DNA of 64,000 nt from NCBI GenBank assembly GCA_949128115.1, contig OX421968.1, forward strand, positions 56,003,423 through 56,067,422, read 5' to 3'. The notes under the pieces were generated by a model that ran no database searches, was not told where the DNA came from, and saw nothing but the letters and a program-made list of their open reading frames with translations. The stretch's first letter is position 1. The number at the start of each line of letters is the position of its first letter. This document shows positions 49,500 through 64,000 of the stretch, piece after piece. This DNA is from Anaspis maculata (Eukaryota > Arthropoda > Insecta > Coleoptera > Scraptiidae). The position numbers and the translations under genes are program-made.

Positions 49500-50860
49500 G
49501 GGCGTGAGGCTCAGTAGCGCACTTCCTGTTGGGAGGATTGGTCTATCTCGTTGTTCAAGAAGCAAAGAAATCCTAGATTGGAGCCAAGTACAAGACCTTA
49601 ACATTTTTAAGACAGGAACAATGCCGACTCTGGAGAGAACGACAAGCAGTTCGTATATCGTCCTGACCATGGTGGACGACTGCGTGGCTTCATCAAGACC
49701 AACATTGAAAGTCCTAGAAGAGGAATCTTTTAGCGATCACAAATGGGCGGAACACAACCACGAAATTGACCACAATACAGATTTGGACCGATCAACGCTA
49801 AACAACTAAACGGTTGTTATTACACTAATAACATACACCCAACAACAGAATTCAAACATTAATAATCAAACGGACACTTTCAGGAAAAAATAACAAAGAA
49901 CAAAAATACGTTGGACATAAACACATGTTTATGAACGCATTCAAGATAACGACACCAAGAGTAAGGTACGACTCGGAAGGAAGAATACCATACTGGCTGA
50001 CAGGCGAAATCCTCGAAGCAATAAAATATCTCAAAAACACGCGTAGAAACATGCTACGAGCAAAGAAGAAACAGAACCCGCAAGAGATAACTACCTGGAC
50101 AGAGACAAATACTACGGCTAGAAAAGATCTCAGAAAACAGATCGAAGAGGCGAAGCGAGAGAAATGGGAAGAAACAATCAAGATGTTAGATACTGACATA
50201 TTTGGAACAGGATACAGTATCGTCCGATCCCAAATGGGATTAAACAATCCAAAAATCACACTCACACCCGAAAGAAAACTCCAAATATTCAAAGAACTGT
50301 TCGTTACGGAAAAGGCACCAGGAGACGAACCCTTCCACTATCGAATTAAGACAACGTAACAGAGTTTAGCGAAGAAGAAATCAAACAAGCTGCCGAAAAA
50401 ATTAAAAACGGCAAAGCTCCCGGACCATACGCCATTCCGGAAGTGATTAAGACGATAAAGGCAAATGTCGAATACTTCAGAGATTCTTTGAAAATATCCT
50501 CAAAAAGAACGAATTTCCAGAGCGTTGGAAAACTGCTAACCTAATCCTTTTTGACAAACCAAAAAAACAGTCGAACGAGACAACAAAATACAGATCGATA
50601 TGCCTCATGTATATACTCGGAATGACTTATGAAAATCTAATTAGTAGACGAATTTTGTACGAGATTGAAGAAAAGGGAGCCTTCCACGATCATCAATATG
50701 GATTCCGAAAAGGAAGAACAACAATTAACGCAGTTAACAAAGTAACAGAGATAGCAAAGAAAGAGAAAGACTGGTGTCCCCTCATTCTAGTAGACGAGAC
50801 GTTAAGAACGCGTTCAATGGCTACGTTCATACTAGAAGACTAAAGCCGGACTGACCCAAG
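49500..50860 (+). pseudogene. R1-like retrotransposon relic, part 1 (endonuclease end and RT start)
   Basis: Frames in order: RSKEILDWSQVQDLNIF, SSYIVLT, KVLEEESFSDHKW (endonuclease C-terminus, to about 49760); then 49925-50359 with RIPYWLTGEILEAIK and RSQMGLNNPKITLTPE; KIKNGKAPGP (about 50395); YRSICLMYILGMTYENLI; FHDHQYGFRKGRTTINAV; LILVD, then after a frameshift DVKNAFNGYVHTRRLK (RT motif A) to about 50860. It is clearly related to the better copy at 54330-57110 but diverged. It continues at 57965 after an insertion. Confidence 0.85.
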
Positions 50861-52799
50861 CACTTACTCAAATTCCACCTAAAATGGTCCTTCTCAACCA
50901 CCATTTACACCGGTAGACTTAGTACTAGCAGTTCACAACATAATCTGGTACAATCCTGCATTTTGTGATACAAACAAGAACTTCGGCACAATTGTTCCTA
51001 GATCCAAAATGAATAATTTGGCCCGCTGTTCTTTTCGATTACCCCCTGCTGGTCCAGGATTTGGGGGGTACAAGGGGGACATGACTATTTTTTGCTGCAA
51101 GCACTAAACACTGCCATCGAATCATGTTTGATGTAATTTCTGAATAACAAGAGCCTGCTGATTACGATGTCGCCACTGTCAGAATGATGCGCCTGTCGGG
51201 AGGCAGTGTAGAGCTGACCTCCCGACAATTTTACTATGGGGGCTTCCTGAATTAATAAATTTTGGTCATCGAAGGGGATGTGTGGGGTAGATATCATTTA
51301 TAACATAATCGAGGTCTGCAAACTCATTTCTTTTTGTAAAAATATAATTGGTTTGAAACTGTGGAAAATATGAGGGGTCAAAATTATAATTATCGATTAT
51401 CAAACATTTACGATTCGCATTGAATCTACTTTTGTTGCACTTTTGATTAGGCTGAGTTAGCGAGTTACGATACCGCCATTGTCGAGGCGCTGCGTTCGCT
51501 AGAAGTCGAGTTATGACGGATTTATTCGAATTGGAGAAGTTCCTGAAAGCCGCTGCAGTGGCCATTCAAAAAAAAGTGGAATATAATTTCGACCACCTTT
51601 AGACTCGGGGAGTCTACTTTTTCTCATAAAAATGAAACTCTGTCAATATTGAGGGGGCTCATGAAATGGAGATTTTGTACTTTTTGGTCCACAAGCACTC
51701 GCCTTGGAGCCTAAAAAAAATACATCTCAGCATAAAATGATGATGCTGATGCGATACTGTCATCGCTGAAGCGATACGTCAACCAAAAGCCAAGTGGGGG
51801 CTGTAACTCTTTGTACTTGAGGTACGCGTCTTGAATTAGGTCAGTTTGGTCTTGAAATATGATGTGTTGGGCATCATTTCTAATGTTTTTTGGGTCGCTG
51901 ATTTCATTTCTCAATGCAAAATTTTGATTGACTTACAAGCGGAGGTGTAGCTGGTCTTAGTACATGGGAGATATCCCCCTCTCCCCGATTTCTAATTCAA
52001 TCAAAATTTTGCATTAAGAAATGAAATTTGCGACCCAAAAAACATTAGAAATGATGCCCAACACATTATATCTCAAGACCAATCTAACCTAATTCAAGAC
52101 GCGCACCCCAAGTACAAAGAGTTACAGCCCCCACTCGGCTTCTAGATGACGTATCGCTTCGGCGATGACAGCATCGCATCGGCGTCATCAATTTATGCTT
52201 AGATATATTCCCTCAAGGATTTAAACGAGTGCTTGCGCAGAAAAAAGCGAAAAATCTATATTGCATGAGCCCCCTTAATATTGATAGAATTTTATCTTTA
52301 TGTAAAGAAGGAAGTTTGATGAGTCTAAAGGCGGCCGAAATTATATTCCACACTTTCCTTAACGGTCAATATAGCCAGTTTCAGGATTTTTTTCCAATTC
52401 GAAATTATTGGTCATAGCTCGACTTCTGGAAAACGCAGCGCCTCGGTAATGACGACATAGTAATTCGCTGACTCAGCCTAATAAAAGGTGCAATAAAACT
52501 CAGTTCAATGCGAATCGTAAATGTTTGATAATCGATAATCATAATTTTGACCTCTCATATTTTCCACAGTTTCAAACCAATCACATTTTCACACAAAGAA
52601 ACGAGTTCGCAGACCTCGATTATGTCAGAAATGATACCCCACACATCCCCTTCGATGACCAAAATTTGTTATTTCAGGGAGCCCCCACTGCAAATCTGAC
52701 AGCTCTACCTTGTCTCCCGACAGGCGCATCATTCTGACAGTGGCGACATCGTGATCAGCAGGTTCTAGTTATTCCCCACTGCCGGAGGGTGACTTCCTG

Positions 52800-54089
52800 T
52801 TGGTGCCGATTCGTGGGAACAGAATGGAAAAATTCTTAAAAAAAAAAGATGTCGACAAGCAAGACACGGCGACGGAGAAGGACGACGATTTATCTACACC
52901 ACTTGTAGAAAGCGACGTGTTCGGGAGAAGAGGAAGCGTTCTACACTCTCCAATAGATAGAATCTCGACACCCAACAGCGACACAGCCAAAAGCGAAGTA
53001 GATCTGACTGCTGACTCTGAAGAAGACGAGTTCAGAACTCCCGCGGGAGTACTCACCACGGCCGGAAAGCTGAGTTACAGCACGGGTACGCCAAAATTCA
53101 GAGGTCGTAGTCATGAACGTCTTAAAAGGTCGAGCCCAAATATAGATGGCAGAGCTCAATCGGAATGTTCCAAACCGATTGAGGACTCTGAAATCAGAAA
53201 ACTTGAAAGAAAAATCATCGGAAAAATTGATGAACTCCACAAATTCGTGATGGCAAAGGAAAACAGCAACGTGCACAGAGAAGTGAAACGGATTGTAAAC
53301 GATCTCACGTCGTTACTTCGAAAGTCTGGCCAGAGGCGACAGGAGGGCGAGGAAATTGCTGGTGAGAGCCTAGTGTTCTCGTCTGATTCTTCGACTAGAG
53401 CCCTAGTGGAAAAACGAGTGCTCCAGACAGAGCTAGAGACCATTAAACTGAGAAACGAGAAGAACGAGAGAGACTGGAGAGCACAAAACTTCTACCAAGG
53501 TGAAAAAATCACGAAACTCGAAGCTCAGCTCTTGACATGCGAAGAGAAACATGACGAACTCCAAAAAACCATCAGAGAACAGGCAGCCCTGATCATATCT
53601 CTCGAGAACAGAATCCAAAACGCACAAATAGGAATTTCAAATGAGGGGGCACTCGAAAAGAAGAGTGTCCAAGAGGAGTCTGTTGGGACGCAAACCTTGG
53701 AAACTAAAATTACAGACGCAATCACGGCGGAGAACATTGACGACGCAATAAAATCCTGTCATGACTGGGAGACAACGGTTGCAATTATCAACTTGCAATG
53801 GCCTGAAAGCATTTTCAAAGCGACAGTGGAAGTGACGGGCGATCTTTTTGAGGCTCCAGAGGGCTTTGCGCTAGCGCATTGTGTTGGCGCTGACCTAGGC
53901 ATGTCAAGGGGAATTGCCGTGCGCTTCAAGGATCGTTTTCAAAGCGTCGGCGAACTAAAAAGCCAAAACAAAAAAACCGGCGAAGTTGCAACAATAACCA
54001 AGAAAACCGAGCTCGAGAACGGAAGAAACATCGATCGGACGGTATACTACTTGGCAACAAAGAGCCACGGCGTCGGAATGCAGCAGTGA
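52800..54089 (+). CDS. R1-type ORF1 with macrodomain-like C-terminal part
   Basis: 429 codons from ATG 52800; an in-frame ATG at 52824 (MEKFLKKKDVDK) is an equally good start. Residues 1-120 are acidic and Ser/Thr-rich; about 120-310 are Lys/Glu-rich with heptad character, probably a coiled coil (usual for ORF1 oligomerisation). Residues about 340-425 resemble the N-terminal half of TARG1/OARD1 macrodomains: VTGDLF, ALAHCVGADLGM, GIAVRFKDRF, VGELKSQNKKTGEVA and VYYLATK. The last Lys matches the catalytic Lys84 of human OARD1. The second half of the fold, with the catalytic Asp, is absent: the frame stops at 54089. Function in the element is unknown; ADP-ribose binding is an inference. Confidence 0.75.
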   Translation: MVPIRGNRMEKFLKKKDVDKQDTATEKDDDLSTPLVESDVFGRRGSVLHSPIDRISTPNSDTAKSEVDLTADSEEDEFRTPAGVLTTAGKLSYSTGTPKFRGRSHERLKRSSPNIDGRAQSECSKPIEDSEIRKLERKIIGKIDELHKFVMAKENSNVHREVKRIVNDLTSLLRKSGQRRQEGEEIAGESLVFSSDSSTRALVEKRVLQTELETIKLRNEKNERDWRAQNFYQGEKITKLEAQLLTCEEKHDELQKTIREQAALIISLENRIQNAQIGISNEGALEKKSVQEESVGTQTLETKITDAITAENIDDAIKSCHDWETTVAIINLQWPESIFKATVEVTGDLFEAPEGFALAHCVGADLGMSRGIAVRFKDRFQSVGELKSQNKKTGEVATITKKTELENGRNIDRTVYYLATKSHGVGMQQ

Positions 54090-54231
54090 GCCGAAGTGCT
54101 GCGCATGCAACGACATTGGAGCAGAAGATGACCACTACCCAGGCAGTAGAAAGTGCAATAAGGCCTACAAAGATTCCCTGGATCAGCGAAATGAGTATGT
54201 ACAGAGTTTACATTGTCGACGAAGTCCCGAA
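54073..54231 (+). pseudogene. CCHC zinc knuckle of ORF1, out of frame
   Basis: In the frame shifted relative to ORF1, KCCACNDIGAEDDHYPGSRK and a final C give CX2CX8HX6C (Cys codons at 54097, 54106 and 54154; His at 54133). Zinc knuckles normally close ORF1 of R1 and Jockey elements, so this copy has a frameshift or deletion between the macrodomain-like part and the knuckle. Confidence 0.65.
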
Positions 54232-54329
54232 TAGTCGACAGAGACTTTCTGACAAGGAAATCGTAAACACGAAAGACAACAAACATCAAAGATCATCGTG
54301 CAAAAATCAGAATATAGTCCCCTCCAAAC

Positions 54330-57110
54330 ATGAAAGTACTACAAATAAACACAAACAACAGTAGCCATGCCCTGGACATGGCCCTCGCAGTCGCCTCAAA
54401 AGAAAATGTCGACATAATCGCAATAACGGAACCAAACAAAAAACGATGCTGTAACAAGACCAACATATACGCAAATGAACAAAAAACGGCATGCATAATA
54501 AACTATAGCAAAAACTATCGGATCCAAAAACTTCGAACGGGAAAATCCTTCGTGAACATAGAGACGGAGGACTTCTCCATATACAGCATCTACATCAGCC
54601 CAAACTGTTCATTTGAGACTTTTAACATCTGCCTTGAGGAACTCCATGAAGAAATCTGCAGAGTCCGAAGCAAAAAGATTATTGTCACAGGAGACTTTAA
54701 CGCCAAGAATAAAATCTGGGGAGGCACAAAGACAGACAACATTCTGAACAATAGAAAACACCCAACCCTGGTGAGAACAACAGGTGTCTCCTACATTGAT
54801 CTCACGCTAGTCGACGACCAGATCACAACTTTGAACCCATCGTGGAAGGTCCTAAACGACGAATCGCTCAGCGATCACCAATTTTTAGTGACGGACACAC
54901 GAATAAGAAAGAAACAATATCGGCCGCTATATAAATATGGCCCAATACAACCCGGAAAACTTATAGCTAACTTCACGGAAATGCTTAGAGGACAGATGAA
55001 TTTTGAAGCCGAAGAATGCACCAAACTCATCAGCGAGGCCTACAAAAAAACAACATCAAGGATACGCTGCGACCCAAATGGGCAAATACCATACTGGTGG
55101 TCAAACGAGATCCACGAACTGATGAAAGCAACCAAAAAAATAAGAAGACGCTGGAAACGCTCACAAAAACAGCGCAAGGCACAGTCAGTTGATTTTAAAG
55201 AAGAATACTCTGCAGCCAAAAAGCGACTTACAACAGAAATCCAAAATGCCAAAAGACAAAAATGGGAAAACATTTGCGCAGACCTAGATAACGATATATT
55301 CGGAGCCGCCTACCAAATCGTACGCTCACAAGCAAAGCTCAAAAACCCGAAAATTGACTTGACACAAAAAGAAAAACACGAACTCTTTCAACAACTGTTC
55401 CCAAGAAACGAAAGTCAACGAAGAGTCTCCTGTAACTTCACGAAAGAAACCGCGCCCGACTTCACCCTAGAAGAGCTGAATGAAGCAACTAAAAGAATAA
55501 AGATCGGAAAAGCGCCCGGACCGAACCAGATCCCGCCAGAAGTCATCAAAACGTTAATAACAGCATGTCCTGATTACTTTCTAAAAGTCTACAACACATT
55601 ACTGCAAAGAAACCATTTCCCGGATCCCTGGAAAAGAGCCAACCTGGTTCTTATAGAAAAGCCAAAGAAAAATAGAGACGAACCTACAAAATACAGACCC
55701 ATATGCTTACTAGATGTGCTGGGTAAAACGTACGAGAACCTTATAAACGGGAGGCTAACGAAAGAGATAGAAAACAATGGCGGACTCGACAAGATGCAAT
55801 TTGGCTTCCGCAAAGGCAGAACGACTATTGATGCTATACAACAGGTCGTTAACATAGCCAAAAACGAAAGAAACTGGTGTGCACTGATTCTAATAGACGT
55901 CAAAAATGCTTTCAACAGCGCACAATGGCATATAATCATAAATGAACTTGAGCAACGGAACATCCTGAAATACATAGTGAATGTGACAAAGTCGTACTTT
56001 ACCAACAGGAAAATTAACATAGATAGAAAACACGCACAAGACATGGAGAAGGGAGTACCGCAAGGAACAATCATGGGGCCTAATCTATGGAACGTGATGT
56101 ACGACGGCGTCATGAAGATAAAAGTCCCAGACGGGGTGAAACTTATATGCTACGCGGACGACCTGGCAATTATAGCTACAGCGAGGACCGACATACTACT
56201 GACCAAGAAATGTAACGAGACCCTATCAGCCGTGAATAAATGGATGAAAACGAACAGTCTGGAAATCGCTGCGGGAAAAACAACGGCAACGATCCTAAAC
56301 ATGAAAAGGAACATGGAAAGGATAAAATTTATGTTAGATGGCAACCCGATCTCGCTAAACAAAACAACCAAATACCTTGGGATTACGATTGATCGTAGAC
56401 TGACGTTCGGACCGCACATCAAAGAAGTCTGCGAAAAAGCAAACAAGACCACGAGAGCCCTGACAAATTTGATGCCAAACATCAAAGGTCCCAGAGCGAA
56501 AAAAGACGTTAGGAATGGTGATGCAGAGCATAGTTTTGTATGGAGCCCCAATCTGGAGTACAGCGTTGAGAATGGAGTGGTGTAGACGTAGAGTAGCAAC
56601 AACGGAAAGATCGATGGCGCTGAGAGTGGCTTCAGCATATAGGACGGTGTCCCACGAAGCAGCAATGGTGGTAGCGGGAATTCCACCTATCGCGCTCCTG
56701 GCGGAGGAAAGGAAAGCGAGATATACGGGCCGGACGGCGGCGGAAGCAAAGATGAAAACGATGGAACTATGGCAGCTGGAATGGGATACAAGTAGCAAGG
56801 GCAGATGGACACATATGATGATCCCGGACGTAACATTATGGATGAACCGAAAAGAAGGAGACGTCGATTACTTCACTACACAGTTTCTAACAGGACACGG
56901 CTCCTTCAATGAATATCTCCACAGGATGAAGAGAAGGACGTCACCGAAGTGTACACTATACATACTGCGAAGCCATCGACACAGTGAGACACACGTTCTT
57001 TGAATGCAAAAGATGGGAAGAGGAAAGAAATGGAGCGAAAACGAGCTTAAAACGGAAAATTACACCAGAAAGCATAGTGGAAACAATGCTGGAGGATGGA
57101 AAAAAGTAGA
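54330..57110 (+). pseudogene. R1-type ORF2: endonuclease, reverse transcriptase, C-terminal zinc finger
   Basis: Frame 54330-56585: endonuclease with LQIN, TEP, VTGDFNAKNKIWGG, SYIDLTLVDD, SLSDHQF (a stretch of about 25 residues common in R1 seems missing before SYIDLT). RT: GKAPGPNQIPPEVI, YRPICLLDVLGKTYE, FGFRKGRTTIDAI, ALILIDVKNAFN, KGVPQGTIMGPNLWN, YADDLAI, TKYLGITIDRRLTF. A frameshift near 56515 leads to YGAPIWSTAL, RTVSHEAAMVVAGIPPIALL (56515-57003). A second near 56955 leads to YCEAIDTVRHTFFECKRWEE, the C-terminal CCHC-like finger, ending at about 57110. YGAPIW and AGIPPI-LL place it in the R1 clade. Two frameshifts make it inactive. Confidence 0.92.
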
Positions 57111-57633
57111 ACGTGGTAAAGGACTGGTGCAAAGCGGTACTGATGAGAAAAAACAGCGAAGATGAGGCAGGAAAGCGCCATAATCGGCAAGAAACTTGAA
57201 AGACTTCAATTAAGACCAGCCGCCCCCCATGATATGCTCACGCGGTTCCAGGGAGCGGGTTAACCACCAGGTCTGAGGCGGAGTTTAGTGGGTAGTGGTT
57301 TAGCGAAAGACGCTTGCCGAGTCCCACACTACCCCGGTGCCACCAAGCCGGGGTGTGCGTAAAAGCATTCTTCGCCGCCCCCCCCCCCAAAAAAAAAAAG
57401 TTCTAGTTATTCAGAAATGACATCAAACATAAATCGATAGGAGCGTTTAGTGCTTGCAGCAGAAAATAGTCATGCCCCCCTTGTACCCCCTAAGTCCCGG
57501 ACCAGCAGGGGGTAATCGAAGAGAACAGCGGGCCAAATTATTCATTTTGGTTCTAGGAACAATCATGCCGAAGTTCTTGTTTGTGTCACAAAGTGCAGGA
57601 TTTTTTTGTGTACCGCTAGTACTAACTAGGTCG

Positions 57634-60056: not shown

Positions 60057-60856
60057 CATGGGCGCCCGGAGGGGGGGGCAAGGGGGGGCACTTGCCCCCC
60101 CCTGGCTCCGGAGCAGCTGAATAAATTCTTCCTTACAAAAAATTTTTTTTTTCGAGAAAGAAAAAAAAATTCATTTTCGAAAGAAAAATCTTTGAGAAGG
60201 TAATTTACATTTTCTTGAATTGTTAGAGCAATTTGAAATTTCATTAGGCTTCTAACTAAATTAGATAGCTACCCGTAAAGTCATAAAATAGGTAGATAGG
60301 TAGGTAGGTAGGTAACGATCTGCAATTTGGGCATTCCAGCTACCAGCTCCACTGCCCAATATAGGGTGAAATGATTATGTTATTTTTTCCGTTTGGTATA
60401 AACACTGTAAAGAGCTTTGGATTAAAAGCAGTTTATTATCAAAACATTTCTAAGAACTAATAAGCCACTAAAAAGCTGCAGACTGGTGGGGGCAGAGGGC
60501 TGCCGCTGTGCCTACCCTCTGCCTCTGCCTTAAATTTTCTAAACCTCTGGTTTAAAAGACTAGGGGTTTTTTCAAGATAATGAACGAGTGTAACTATTGA
60601 CCTGGCTATTTTGAAGTAAATTTTTATACATTTTGTACAAAATTACAAATTTTAATAAATTTCTCTAAAGTTAAGTTCAATTTTCAAATATATTTCCTTA
60701 TTTTTCGCACAATAATTATTATCACCATTATTATTATTATTCGAAAAAATTTTCGCCTGCGGCGCTAATCTAAAGGACTTCGCAAATTAGGCCAGGTAGG
60801 TATGTCTAACTAAAGCTTTTTGCCCCCCCCTGACAAAAATCCTGCGGGCGCCCATG
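60057..60856. mobile_element. hAT-like element, 800 bp, with 8-bp duplication
   Basis: Ends CATGGGCGCCCGGAGGGG and complement CATGGGCGCCCGCAGG. The duplication TCCCCTGA lies at 60049-60056 and 60857-60864. Removing the element and one copy restores the retrotransposon reading frame exactly. It contains a TAGG tetranucleotide run near 60300. No transposase. Confidence 0.88.
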
Positions 60857-62399
60857 TCCCCTGAGTTTCGGATGACACAACTCAGACTTCTGAACGCCGA
60901 TTTGACGACATCGTTTATGTGCATTCTGAAGGAAACCTCTGGGTCAAAACAAACACCAAGATCTCTGACGCTGCCAGGTCTAGAAAGAGTGTACGCGCCC
61001 AGGTTGTAGTCATAGAAAGTTGGGTTGCGCTTCCGAGTGTAAGACTGTACGTAGCACTTCGAGGCATTTAGTGACAGAAAATTAGCTTTGCACCACTCAT
61101 CAACCATGTCAAGATTTGCCTGAAGTAACCGACAGTCGGCGCGATCATCAATTCTGCAAAATATCTTCAGATCATCGGCATATAATTAATGTTTCACAGA
61201 TAGATTAGCTACTATGTCGTCAGCATATTATCAAAAAGCTCAGGACCAAGATTAGAACCCTGTGGCACACCCGATGTCTGAAGGAACTCACTAGACCTGC
61301 TACCGTTATGCTGGACAAACAGGTGTCTGTCACATAAGTATGATTTCAAGAGCCTGACCAACGAAGGGGACAAGCCAAAGGCGGATAGCTTATGCAGTAA
61401 AGTGTCGTGGTCCAGGGTATCAAAAGCTTTTGAAAAATCGGTGTAAATAACGTCCACCTGATCACCAGAATCAAGCACACCACCGATGAACTGGGTCTTA
61501 CACATGAGATTGGACGCAGTTGAGCGTCCCCTAACAAAACCATGCTGATTTGGAGACAACAACCTGGAGGTATGATTATAGAGAAAGGAATGCAGCACAG
61601 TCTCAAAGACCTTACTGAAGTTGCTCAAGAGGGAGATTGGTCTATAATTTGACATTTCATTTTTATTGCCTTTCTTATGAACTGGACAAATACGTGTACG
61701 TTTCCATATTTTAGGAAATATGGATCTTCTCAATATCAGATTGAACATGTCGGTCAGAGGCTTCACGAAAACTGAGGAGCAGTCCCTAATGAGGAAGGCA
61801 GGCACAGAATCGGGACCAGTTGTCATTCCAGCCTTAAGTTTTCTCAAAGCATCAAGAACTCTCACCTCACCTATCACATTGACAATCAACAAGCCACCGG
61901 ACTCAGGGAATGCGCACGCAGGCCGTCGAGGCGATGTATAGGAGGGGCTCACAAAAACGGAGGAAAACCGCGCCGCAAAAGCGTCAGCGGTGCCTTGAGG
62001 CGTATTGTACTCGACGCCATCGTGAACCATCACTGGTGGAATGTCTCCACACTGCCTTCTAGAGTTGATGTTTTTCCAGAAGGTTGACGGATTATGGACG
62101 ATGTCCCTCTCGATACGGATGAGGTAACTCTTATAGCTGATGTCGATTTCACGCTTGAGAAGCCCACGCAACTCCCTAAAGCGAGCCAGGTCAGCATCAT
62201 TCCCACTCCTCAAAAATCCCCTCCACGCTCTGTCCTTCCGTCTAATGCAAGAGATAATTCTGCCGTTAAACCATGGTGGATATTTGCGGGTTGGCTGCCT
62301 CTTCAAAGGTATGTGCTTATCAAACAAGGTATACAGTTTGGAATAAAAAGCCTCAACAGCAGTGTCAACGTCCTTCAATCCGCACAAAGAAAAGTCCAA
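60857..62399 (-). pseudogene. Jockey/CR1-like ORF2, reverse transcriptase
   Basis: 62399-61212: HIPLKRQPTRKYPPWFNGRI, TGPDSVPAFLIRDCSS, KIWKRTRICPVHKKGN, NYRPISLLSNFSKVFE, QHGFVRGRSTASNL, VIYTDFSKAFDTLDHD, SGVPQGSNLGPELF. The frame then shifts: YADDLKIF at about 61180, continuing 61107-60860 with NFLSLNASKCYVQSY and VRDLGVCFDPEVSF. All RT palm motifs are present but in three frames. Confidence 0.92.
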
Positions 62400-63274
62400 T
62401 CGACCAAAGCGAGATCGGAGTAAAGCGCAGCATAGTTACCCCTTCTGAAGTTGAACTCACCCTTGCCCACGCCGATCGGACTCCTACTTCTCGCAAGACT
62501 GACGGACAACAGCACATCCAGGGCCGGATGATGGCTATCCTGAGGCAAAACAGCAATGGCAGACTCAGAAACCCGCAACACCGCATTGGAAAAAACCAAG
62601 TCCAGCGTCCTATCCATGTCATTCCGAACGGTGTTGTATTGCTCAAAGTCAAAAAAACTAACAAAATTGTCGGACGCGACACGCTTCAAAGACGGAGTGT
62701 CCTCAGAGTAATCGGGAATGTTGAAATCACCCAGGATGACCAATTCCTCGGTGCCGCTGAGGAATGGTAAAGACATAATACAATCAAAGAGGGCAACATA
62801 ATGATGGGGAGCAGTAGATGGGGGAATGTAGATCACAATAATGTGAACAGTACGGAAATTGACGTTAATCTTGACCCCCAGGATATCAACAAAGAACAAT
62901 TCCTGAGGAAACAAATCAAGAGATTTTATATTAATCACCGATGAGCCCAGGTTACTGCCCACAGCCAGCAGCGCACCACCACCTCTTGAAGATCCAGTAG
63001 ATGAAAAATCCCTGTCGCACCTGAAAACACAGAAGCTACGCAGATCAAACAGCTCGCCATCACATACGCCATCATTGAGCCAAGTTTCAGTCAAGACAAA
63101 CACGTCAATGTGAGACATCGACGATACCGACCGAGACAACTCAGAAACCTTCGAGCGCAACCCCCTGACGTTCTGGTAGTAGCAGGAGACAAAAGGGCCA
63201 GGTCGCAGAATCAGAGCCAGAATCAGGTAGAAACGGAACAGGAGGGGAGGACAGCTGCGAGGCATCAGCCGCAT
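62375..63274 (-). pseudogene. Jockey/CR1-like ORF2, endonuclease
   Basis: YYQNVRGLRSKVSELS, DVFVLTETWLNDGV, GGALLAVGSNL, VIYIPPS, LVILGDFNIPDY and DSHHPALDVLL give the apurinic-type endonuclease motifs in order. It overlaps the RT frame by 25 bases, so one frameshift separates them. Confidence 0.9.
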
Positions 63275-63327: not shown

Positions 63328-64000
63328 TCAGCCACTGTAAGCATGGCAGCTGTTATATTCGAACGCGGCATGATCAGTTTTTATATCGATGCTCTTTTTG
63401 TTTTTCAAAGAAATGCAGTTACAGCACTGTCTGACCTTGGCTTCACAGCTTTTCAAATCATGTGGGCCAGCGCATATGGGACAACTGACGGGGTTATCGC
63501 AGTTTGCCGAGCCATGGTGGAAAGAGTTACACTTAAAGCATCGCAGTACAGAGATAGCGTCGTATACTATACAGTTGTCAAAACCTATTATAACATGTTT
63601 ACAGCGGATGAGGGCTCTGTAGGTGTCAGCATCAACACCAATTGTCGCTTGGAAAATCTTTTTGTTACTCTTAGTAGGAGCGAACTTGATCAAGCTACAC
63701 TTCGAGTCCTCCACAAAAATTGAGCGATTCTGAGCCTTGAGAAAGCGGATAAATTCGCCCTCCTCAAGATCCTGCGTAACTCCTACAATGCGAACCTGAG
63801 GCTGAATTGATTTGAGCCCGCGAACATTATAATCAGAATTAAGTTTTTCCTCAGCAAGCTTCAAAAGTTTTACACGGTCCGCGGTGTCACTGCAGTTTAT
63901 CAATAAACCCGAATTGTGCAGATCCCTAACCTCACTGATGTTAATATCATTTTCTACGGAGTTAATTTTCTTCAGAATATCAGCCCTGAGTTCTGTCGAT
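63328..64000 (-). CDS. Jockey/CR1-like ORF1 (gag-like), C-terminal part
   Basis: The frame is open from the window edge to the stop at 63328. It encodes VRIVGVTQDLEEGEFIRFL and NKKIFQATIGVDADTYRAL (an RRM-like segment), then zinc knuckles RCFKCNSFHHGSANC and CPICAGPHDLKSCEAK. The ORF1 protein binds element RNA. The start codon is outside the window. Confidence 0.85.
   Translation of the reverse strand, partial: STELRADILKKINSVENDINISEVRDLHNSGLLINCSDTADRVKLLKLAEEKLNSDYNVRGLKSIQPQVRIVGVTQDLEEGEFIRFLKAQNRSIFVEDSKCSLIKFAPTKSNKKIFQATIGVDADTYRALIRCKHVIIGFDNCIVYDAISVLRCFKCNSFHHGSANCDNPVSCPICAGPHDLKSCEAKVRQCCNCISLKNKKSIDIKTDHAAFEYNSCHAYSG

What the first reader, a model, noticed from the sequence alone, without database searches (positions are those of the whole stretch)
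53819..54089. TARG1/OARD1-like macrodomain in ORF1 of an R1-clade retrotransposon
ORF1 residues about 340-425 carry VTGDLF, ALAHCVGADLGM, GIAVRFKDRF, a GEVA step and VYYLATK in the order and spacing of the N-terminal half of OARD1/TARG1, including the Lys aligned to its catalytic Lys84. I know of no R1-type ORF1 described with such a domain. ADP-ribose recognition could tie the element to DNA-damage sites, PARP signalling or host defence. In this copy the C-terminal half is missing and the zinc knuckle is out of frame, so an intact relative must be found to know the real architecture.
Basis: partly seen in the sequence, partly recalled or inferred. Interest (0 to 1): 0.88.

Follow-up and report, generated by a model that had tools for sequence, protein, structure and literature searches.

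The report
TARG1 enzyme domain in LINE ORF1
A family of jumping genes in this genome carries, inside the protein that probably packages its RNA, a complete copy of the enzyme domain that removes ADP-ribose tags in animal cells; the copy in this window is broken, but other copies in the same genome have the whole domain in an open frame.

Summary
Window 53829-54068 encodes the N-terminal half of a TARG1/OARD1 macrodomain (E 1.1e-12 to human OARD1; 8 best fold matches TARG1) in ORF1 of a LINE bounded by 13-bp duplications (52775-57399). The half-domain results from a deletion of about 0.9 kb in this copy. Other copies have ORF1 frames of 805 and 661 aa (stop to stop) with a complete TARG1 domain (E 3.4e-28, 3.6e-27) and three CCHC knuckles. 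Both catalytic positions (K84, D125) are kept in 4 of 4 full rows; dN/dS is 0.06-0.10 in the informative pairs. One subfamily inserts at TC^AGG in telomere-type TCAGG arrays, like SART1; the window copy and two copies of the 805-aa subfamily do not. Ty3/gypsy Pol proteins here also carry a TARG1 domain; separate capture is favoured (AU p 0.037). Listings of ten paper searches and the passages read showed no such ORF1. Likely role, inferred: removing ADP-ribose from the element's RNP or nucleic-acid ends, against host ADP-ribosylation.

The parts
52775..57399 (+). LINE copy (two ORFs, poly-A 3' end)
   Evidence: bounded by identical 13-bp direct repeats; ORFs; 3' end
52762..52774 (+). target-site duplication, 5' copy
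   Evidence: GTTCTAGTTATTC, second copy at 57400-57412
57400..57412 (+). target-site duplication, 3' copy
52824..54089 (+). ORF1 of this copy, from the ATG that aligns with one in L023 to a premature stop; broken by internal deletion
   Evidence: (alignment)
53829..54068 (+). N-terminal half of TARG1/OARD1-type macrodomain
   Evidence: (E 1.1e-12 to OARD1)
54060..54062 (+). codon of the Lys aligned with catalytic Lys84 of TARG1
54053..54068 (+). deletion junction; about 0.9 kb of ORF1 (macrodomain C-half, middle region, knuckles 1-2) missing relative to L035; about 16 bp belong to both flanking alignments
   Evidence: (L035 matches 68-1294 and 1279-1421 of the element)
54097..54156 (+). third CCHC-type knuckle, out of frame with ORF1
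54330..56585 (+). ORF2: APE-type endonuclease and reverse transcriptase, frame broken near its C-terminus
   Evidence: (RVT_1 2.6e-35; Exo_endo_phos_2 6.7e-14)
56491..57148 (+). shifted-frame remains of the ORF2 C-terminus
   Evidence: tblastn with L042 ORF2

Best explanation
SHOWN: a LINE lineage in this genome has a TARG1/OARD1-class macrodomain built into ORF1, ahead of an RNA-binding-type C-terminus with three CCHC knuckles. In other copies it is complete, has the residues of an active TARG1 (K84, D125, most of the HC and GIA loops), and shows purifying selection. The window copy is a dead, internally deleted member. INFERRED: the domain is an active ADP-ribosylhydrolase delivered with the RNP. 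ORF1p coats element RNA and enters the nucleus with it; there TARG1 activity strips ADP-ribose that host PARPs place on ORF1p/ORF2p, on RNA or DNA ends, or on proteins at the nicked target, so that the RNA escapes marking and target-primed reverse transcription can finish. The same class of domain in Ty3/gypsy Pol of the same genome, probably captured separately, points to a general pressure from host ADP-ribosylation rather than to one insertion site. The host is probably a beetle (TCAGG repeats), also inferred.
For: Intact ORF1s with full domain: E 3.4e-28; 3.6e-27. A profile of four element domains (two LINE, two gypsy) finds 2208 proteins at E<=1e-3 of 3333 candidates; most of the 120 listed bear OARD1-type names, 23 have none. 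Of 45 near-invariant OARD1 columns the four full LINE rows keep 36-39, K84 and D125 in all four. dN/dS of the domain: L038-L041 15 synonymous and 5 other changes over 156 codons, 0.083 (0.101 over the 148 codons), L037-L041 0.064, against 0.141 and 0.155 for the N-terminal region of the same pairs; window-L035 N-half 0.096. L045 and L047 are 99.8% identical over 5.9 kb, so that subfamily is young. Gypsy Pol domain: E 9.5e-43 to OARD1; 104 PF01661 matches, about half in frames of 1,000 aa or more. LINE + gypsy as one clade disfavoured, AU p 0.037. From papers (passages): TARG1 removes ADP-ribose from protein and from DNA/RNA ends, with Lys84 and residue 125 as dyad (PMC7050489, PMC8501950); the review suggests that RNA ADP-ribosylation may serve to recognise transposon-derived or viral RNA.
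Against: No biochemical or expression evidence. OARD1 Leu124, beside the catalytic Asp, is Arg in all four full LINE rows, Tyr93 is Leu, and His106 differs, so substrate or activity may have changed; Cys33 is Gly in L035. One related telomeric LINE (L043 ORF1x) seems to have only a decayed domain, so the activity is dispensable in some relatives. dN/dS rests on few changes: L037-L038 gives 0.184 with 3 and 2 changes, L023-L034 gives 0.6 with 1 and 2, cross-subfamily pairs are saturated, and L037, L041 and L035 are themselves interrupted copies. AU p 0.037 is weak, the groups were named after the tree was seen, and no beetle OARD1 is in the tree. No relative of either architecture was found in other species (limited sensitivity).
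Confidence: 0.5

Rival explanations
1. Telomere guidance: the macrodomain reads ADP-ribose made at chromosome ends (tankyrase/PARP) and helps the RNP find or enter telomeric chromatin, with the endonuclease then cutting TC^AGG.
For: Subfamily 2 copies sit in TCAGG arrays: poly-A followed directly by TCAGG units at 3 of 3 complete 3' ends read, TCAGG arrays at 4 of 6 5' flanks read; the junction matches SART1Bm (PMC7265360), and PMC4700185 says little is known of how SART/TRAS are recruited to telomeric repeats.
Against: The 805-aa subfamily keeps the complete domain but two copies read (L045, L047) have ordinary duplications, and so has the window copy; none of L022-L036 shows a TCAGG array in its stretch; a telomeric relative has a decayed domain; the endonuclease is called the primary determinant of the site in SART1/TRAS1.
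Confidence: 0.15
2. Catalytically dead reader or structural module: the fold serves as an ADP-ribose or RNA-end binding surface, or only as a multimerisation core, without hydrolysis.
For: Leu124 to Arg, Tyr93 to Leu and His106 changes; decayed version tolerated in L043 ORF1x; macrodomains are readers as well as erasers (PMC7050489).
Against: K84, D125, G123, H32 and GIA are kept in 4 of 4 full LINE rows; a reader alone would not need K84.
Confidence: 0.25
3. One capture shared by LINE and Ty3/gypsy through exchange between elements in this genome.
For: Both occur in many copies in one genome and share a TARG1-class domain; the AU test is only just under 0.05.
Against: One branch (96/88) parts LINE rows plus 8 OARD1-type rows (6 named flies, 2 unnamed) from gypsy and the rest; gypsy joins the unnamed P0012 (99/96); one-clade tree 12.6 log units worse, p 0.037; LINE+gypsy+those 8 rows as one side p 0.025.
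Confidence: 0.2
4. Chance similarity, host-gene fragment or assembly join rather than part of the element.
For: Window copy alone is truncated and PF01661 misses it.
Against: E 1e-12 to 3e-28; 21 further LINE-type rows (12 at 74-76%, 1 at 88%, 1 at 54%, 7 at 57-58%), 19 of them without a stop inside the match, on several large contigs; same architecture inside element bounds in L023 and L038.
Confidence: 0.01

Closest known systems
TARG1/OARD1 (C6orf130), ALC1-like macrodomain hydrolase
   Same: Whole domain aligns (L023 residues 377-521, E 3.4e-28); Lys84 and Asp125 positions and GIA loop kept
   Different: A domain inside a LINE ORF1p, not a free 150-aa protein; 9 extra residues before the Lys84 strand; Leu124 is Arg
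SART1/TRAS telomere-specific LINEs of the R1 clade
   Same: Two ORFs, three CCHC knuckles (SART1: PMC4120745), poly-A, insertion at TC^AGG in the SART1 site and orientation for subfamily 2
   Different: Complete TARG1 domain in ORF1; the word 'macro' does not occur in the SART1 paper searched. Window copy not telomeric
Insect LINEs with captured viral SF1 helicase (TRAS ORF2, Jockey ORF1)
   Same: A foreign enzyme domain added to an insect LINE protein (PMC5563155, passages)
   Different: Helicase of viral origin there; animal-type ADP-ribosylhydrolase domain here
Esterase- and PHD-containing LINE ORF1 types (CR1/L2)
   Same: Modular ORF1 with an extra catalytic or reader domain (PMC4120745, passages)
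   Different: Other folds and clades; 'macro' occurs 0 times in that paper

Membership tests
TARG1/OARD1 macrodomain | full-length sequence match to OARD1 | tested here: met
   L023 res 377-521 E 3.4e-28, L038 res 235-388 E 3.6e-27; window copy only the N-half
TARG1/OARD1 macrodomain | catalytic Lys84 and Asp125 | tested here: met
   both kept in 4 of 4 full LINE rows (L038, L041, L023, L035); window has the Lys only, the Asp region is deleted
TARG1/OARD1 macrodomain | ADP-ribose hydrolysis | not testable with these tools
   needs protein
Pfam PF01661 Macro | score over curated cut-off | tested here: inconclusive
   window no hit; L023 16.2, L038 22.3, cut-off 22
R1-clade LINE | APE-type endonuclease + RT in ORF2, ORF1 with CCHC knuckles | tested here: met
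   shared with other LINE clades, so not decisive
R1-clade LINE | RT phylogeny with named R1, TRAS, SART, Waldo | not tested
   no named references in the tools used
SART-type telomere-specific LINE | insertion at T/C^AGG of telomere repeats | tested here: met
   for subfamily 2 only: 3 of 3 complete 3' ends, 4 of 6 5' flanks read
SART-type telomere-specific LINE (window copy itself) | insertion in telomere repeats | tested here: not met
   duplication GTTCTAGTTATTC, inside a palindromic repeat

The most novel reading that the evidence does not exclude
Two unrelated kinds of retroelement in one insect genome, a LINE lineage (partly telomere-specific) and Ty3/gypsy elements (at least one with gag, pol and env-like frames), each captured an ADP-ribosylhydrolase on its own, which would make host ADP-ribosylation an unrecognised restriction system against retrotransposons; and the middle domain of some SART-like ORF1 proteins is a decayed macrodomain, so that the capture is old in that lineage.
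Probability: 0.35. Interest if true: 0.93.

Novelty: new variant of a known kind. Interest (0 to 1): 0.8.

Why it matters
LINE ORF1 proteins are described with RRM, CCHC, coiled-coil, PHD, esterase and helicase parts (PMC5563155, PMC4120745; passages). A working ADP-ribosylhydrolase under purifying selection would be a new class of LINE enzyme, would tie retrotransposition to PARP signalling, and gives a direct one-residue test (Lys84 position). In the telomeric subfamily it also bears on how telomere-specific LINEs work with chromosome-end chromatin. The parallel domain in Ty3/gypsy Pol suggests convergent counter-defence.

Tried and rejected
Chance or host-gene fragment: rejected by E-values and by intact in-frame copies. 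Telomere guidance as the main role: weakened, because non-telomeric copies with the full domain exist and a telomeric relative has a decayed domain. Pfam alone: misleading, misses the window segment. Protein search with the whole window ORF1: no hit at E<=1e-3 among the 7997 candidates scored; with residues 780-932 of one gypsy Pol: none of 45 candidates; so relatives of either architecture in other species were not found, with limited word-based sensitivity. Decayed macrodomain in L043 ORF1x: hhalign P 0.0018 to the LINE profile and 7.8e-4 to the OARD1 profile; the best of 40 shuffles reached 17.1 against 26.4. In a second control the best of 60 shuffles reached 24.7 against 26.4 (LINE profile) and 19.1 against 28.1 (OARD1 profile, which includes one LINE row); of 17 overlapping segments of L043 ORF1x and ORF2x the best from ORF2x scored 13.6. 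So it is likely, not proved. Script faults: the BLAST part printed nothing (redone); one search stopped before its tree (done); one search stopped after two regions, so dN/dS of the C-terminal region and of subfamily 1 was not obtained. The host's own OARD1 gene and the spread of the domain over more LINE families were not determined, because the genome search did not complete.

Tree rows: 33 rows; GYP_L006 (79 aa) was dropped; L003 and L009 were not picked up by the motif used; the 22 OARD1-type rows were picked by hand from 120 listed, 8 of them unnamed; window and L036 rows are partial; the named insects are all flies.

Full report
Observation. The reported motifs are in the + strand frame 52755-54089. 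phmmer against solved structures gives human OARD1/TARG1 as the only family under E 0.1: 1.1e-12 for 53736-54086 and 2.6e-11 for the entire frame. Pfam Macro is not reached. An AlphaFold2 model of the window segment, made with 20 OARD1-type proteins as alignment, has mean pLDDT 76 (blocks of 10 residues from 31 to 110: 81-93), and its eight best PDB matches are TARG1 entries, followed by DarG macrodomains; the alignment leans on the same homology.

The element. Thirteen-base duplications GTTCTAGTTATTC at 52762-52774 and 57400-57412 bound a 4.6-kb insertion that ends in poly-A. It lies in a palindromic repeat (51142-52774, 82%; 50952-51152 is inverted to 57402-57602, 91%). ORF2 has endonuclease and reverse transcriptase domains and frame breaks near its C-terminus.

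Why the domain is half. Against L023 ORF1, residues 68-454 match 52791-54065 and residues 755-790 match 54070-54180 in another frame. Against L035, the closest copy (85% at DNA level), the two matching stretches overlap by about 16 bases in the window (54053-54068) and are about 0.9 kb apart in L035. So this copy has lost the macrodomain C-half, the middle region and two knuckles through an internal deletion, perhaps at a short direct repeat.

Relatives with the whole domain. A search of the genome (758 Mb, 50 contigs) with 131 residues listed 150 matches, all that were scored of 404 candidates. Apart from the window itself, 12 rows at 74-76% identity (5 with an 805-aa open frame), one at 88% (L035), one at 54% (L036) and 7 at 57-58% (3 with a 661-aa open frame) are LINE ORF1 copies; many rows near 50% lie at the Ty3/gypsy places; other rows were not classified. 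L023 and L038 encode the whole architecture: an N-terminal region (it looks acidic and coiled-coil-like to the eye; not tested), the macrodomain, a middle region with at most weak RRM resemblance (Pfam E 0.013 in L023, below cut-off), and three CCHC knuckles starting at residues 723, 745, 764 and 572, 594, 613. They hit OARD1 over residues 377-521 and 235-388 at E 3.4e-28 and 3.6e-27, plus LIN28 or retroviral nucleocapsid knuckles at E 8e-4 to 9e-3. The frames are stop to stop; shared or first Met at residue 79 (L023) and 8 (L038).

Active site and selection. Among 45 columns that are at least 95% invariant in 120 OARD1-type proteins, L038 keeps 36, L041 36, L023 39, L035 38; the partial rows keep 24 of 28 (L036) and 23 of 24 (window). 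H32, G43-I44-A45, K84, G123 and D125 are kept in all four full rows; C33 is lost in L035; L124 is Arg in all four. Numbering follows a 152-aa mammalian OARD1 (P0019); K84/residue-125 roles are from passages of PMC7050489 (which prints residue 125 as Glu; the sequences show Asp) and PMC8501950 (K84A inactive). Nei-Gojobori dN/dS of the domain is 0.083 (L038-L041; 15 synonymous, 5 other changes), 0.064 (L037-L041; 12 and 3) and 0.184 (L037-L038; 3 and 2); for the N-terminal region of the same pairs 0.141, 0.155 and 0.27. Window-L035 N-half 0.096 (19 and 8 changes); L023-L034 0.6 from 3 changes in all. Pairs across subfamilies are at or near saturation at synonymous sites.

Target sites. Subfamily 2 (661-aa ORF1, 1067/1068-aa ORF2 frame) lies in (TCAGG)n: in L044 (C9:5000-14999) 761 CCTGA units, poly-T, the element, then 9.6 GACCT units. 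Poly-A is followed by AGGTC units at 3 of 3 complete 3' ends (two copies of L042/L043, one of L044; the L046 copy has no complete 3' end), and TCAGG arrays, partly imperfect, lie upstream in 4 of 6 5' flanks; the other two have an upstream element's poly-A with one unit (L038), or a partial unit (L040); the seventh row was not fetched. This is the site and orientation given for SART1Bm, and TCAGG is named there as the Tribolium castaneum repeat (PMC7265360, Discussion and passages), so the host is probably a beetle. Subfamily 1 has ordinary duplications at the two copies read (L045, L047), which are 99.8% identical over 5.9 kb. The window ORF2 is 50% identical to the telomeric ORF2 and 33-35% to L045 and L043, while its macrodomain is closest to L035 and L023; this hints at ORF1/ORF2 exchange; not followed up.

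A decayed relative. The telomeric element at L043 1042-6338 has a 711-aa ORF1 frame that aligns with L038 ORF1 over most of its length (24.5% over 607 aa). Its middle region matches the LINE macrodomain and OARD1 profiles weakly (one of two shuffle controls came close for the LINE profile) and keeps 12 of 39 invariant columns, without the Asp loop. This suggests a macrodomain that lost its pocket.

Second retroelement class. The PF01661 search gave 104 matches of 150 scored (241 candidates), about half (53 by my count) in frames of 1,000 aa or more; two are host genes by look (L001, L002). L008 and L010 show RT, RNase H, TARG1 domain and integrase in order (read from the frames); L021 shows gag-, pol- and env-like frames around one, with 144 identical bases near its two ends, cut by the stretch's end. 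The L008 domain hits OARD1 at E 9.5e-43 with K84 and D125 positions kept. In a 33-row tree the LINE rows form one clade (100/98); one branch (96/88) parts them and 8 OARD1-type rows (6 named flies, 2 unnamed) from the rest; gypsy rows form a clade (96/87) beside the unnamed P0012 (99/96). Holding LINE and gypsy together costs 12.6 log units, AU p 0.037; holding LINE, gypsy and those 8 rows together costs 8.4, p 0.025. Separate capture is favoured, not proved.

Mechanism. TARG1 is described as the only hydrolytically active ALC1-like enzyme in animals, acting on MARylated protein and on ADP-ribosylated nucleic-acid ends (PMC7050489; PMC8501950; passages). An ORF1p that carries it would bring de-ADP-ribosylation to the RNP and to the nicked target. 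I rank general counter-action of host ADP-ribosylation (protein, RNA or DNA-end) first, a binding-only role second, telomere guidance third. All three are inference.

Prior art. Ten paper searches in the open PMC library showed in their listings no paper on a macrodomain in a retrotransposon protein; one search listed 30 of 31 papers and one search listed 15 of 61. Passages of seven papers were seen (PMC7265360, PMC4120745, PMC5563155, PMC4700185, PMC10435583, PMC8501950, PMC7050489), and of the first the Discussion; none was read whole. 'macro' occurs 0 times in PMC7265360, PMC4120745 and PMC5563155. Subscription papers and repeat databases were not searched, so an earlier record may exist.

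Noticed in passing
L008, L010, L021 (G000:C3:93350000-93358000); 104 PF01661 matches, two of them host genes by look: Ty3/gypsy elements, at least one with an env-like frame, carry a complete TARG1-type macrodomain between RNase H and integrase in Pol.
   Followed up: partly
L043:1042-6338: Another telomeric LINE with a like 5' end sequence and TCAGG flank; ORF1 middle region looks like a macrodomain without its ADP-ribose pocket.
   Followed up: partly
L042:4699-4891: 16-bp tandem repeat (12 copies) between ORF1 and the ORF2 domains of the telomeric subfamily.
   Followed up: no
window 51142-52774: 1.6-kb palindromic repeat (82%) that hosts the LINE insertion; its outer part is found inverted at 57402-57602.
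   Followed up: partly
window 49558-50795 (+): Fragments of a second R1-like ORF2, 56-63% identical to the telomeric subfamily in three pieces and 27% in a fourth.
   Followed up: no
window 63337-63984 (-): C-terminal part (middle region and knuckles) of another LINE ORF1, 23% identical to L038/L023, running towards the window end.
   Followed up: no
window 60787-62435 (-): A different non-LTR reverse transcriptase in two open frames.
   Followed up: no
L001 and L002: Probable host macrodomain genes: L001 best PF01661 match, MacroD-like; L002 GDAP2-like exon (names recalled, not tested).
   Followed up: no
window ORF2 against L042, L045 ORF2: Window ORF1 macrodomain is closer to the 805-aa subfamily, but window ORF2 is closer to the telomeric subfamily: possible ORF1/ORF2 exchange.
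   Followed up: no
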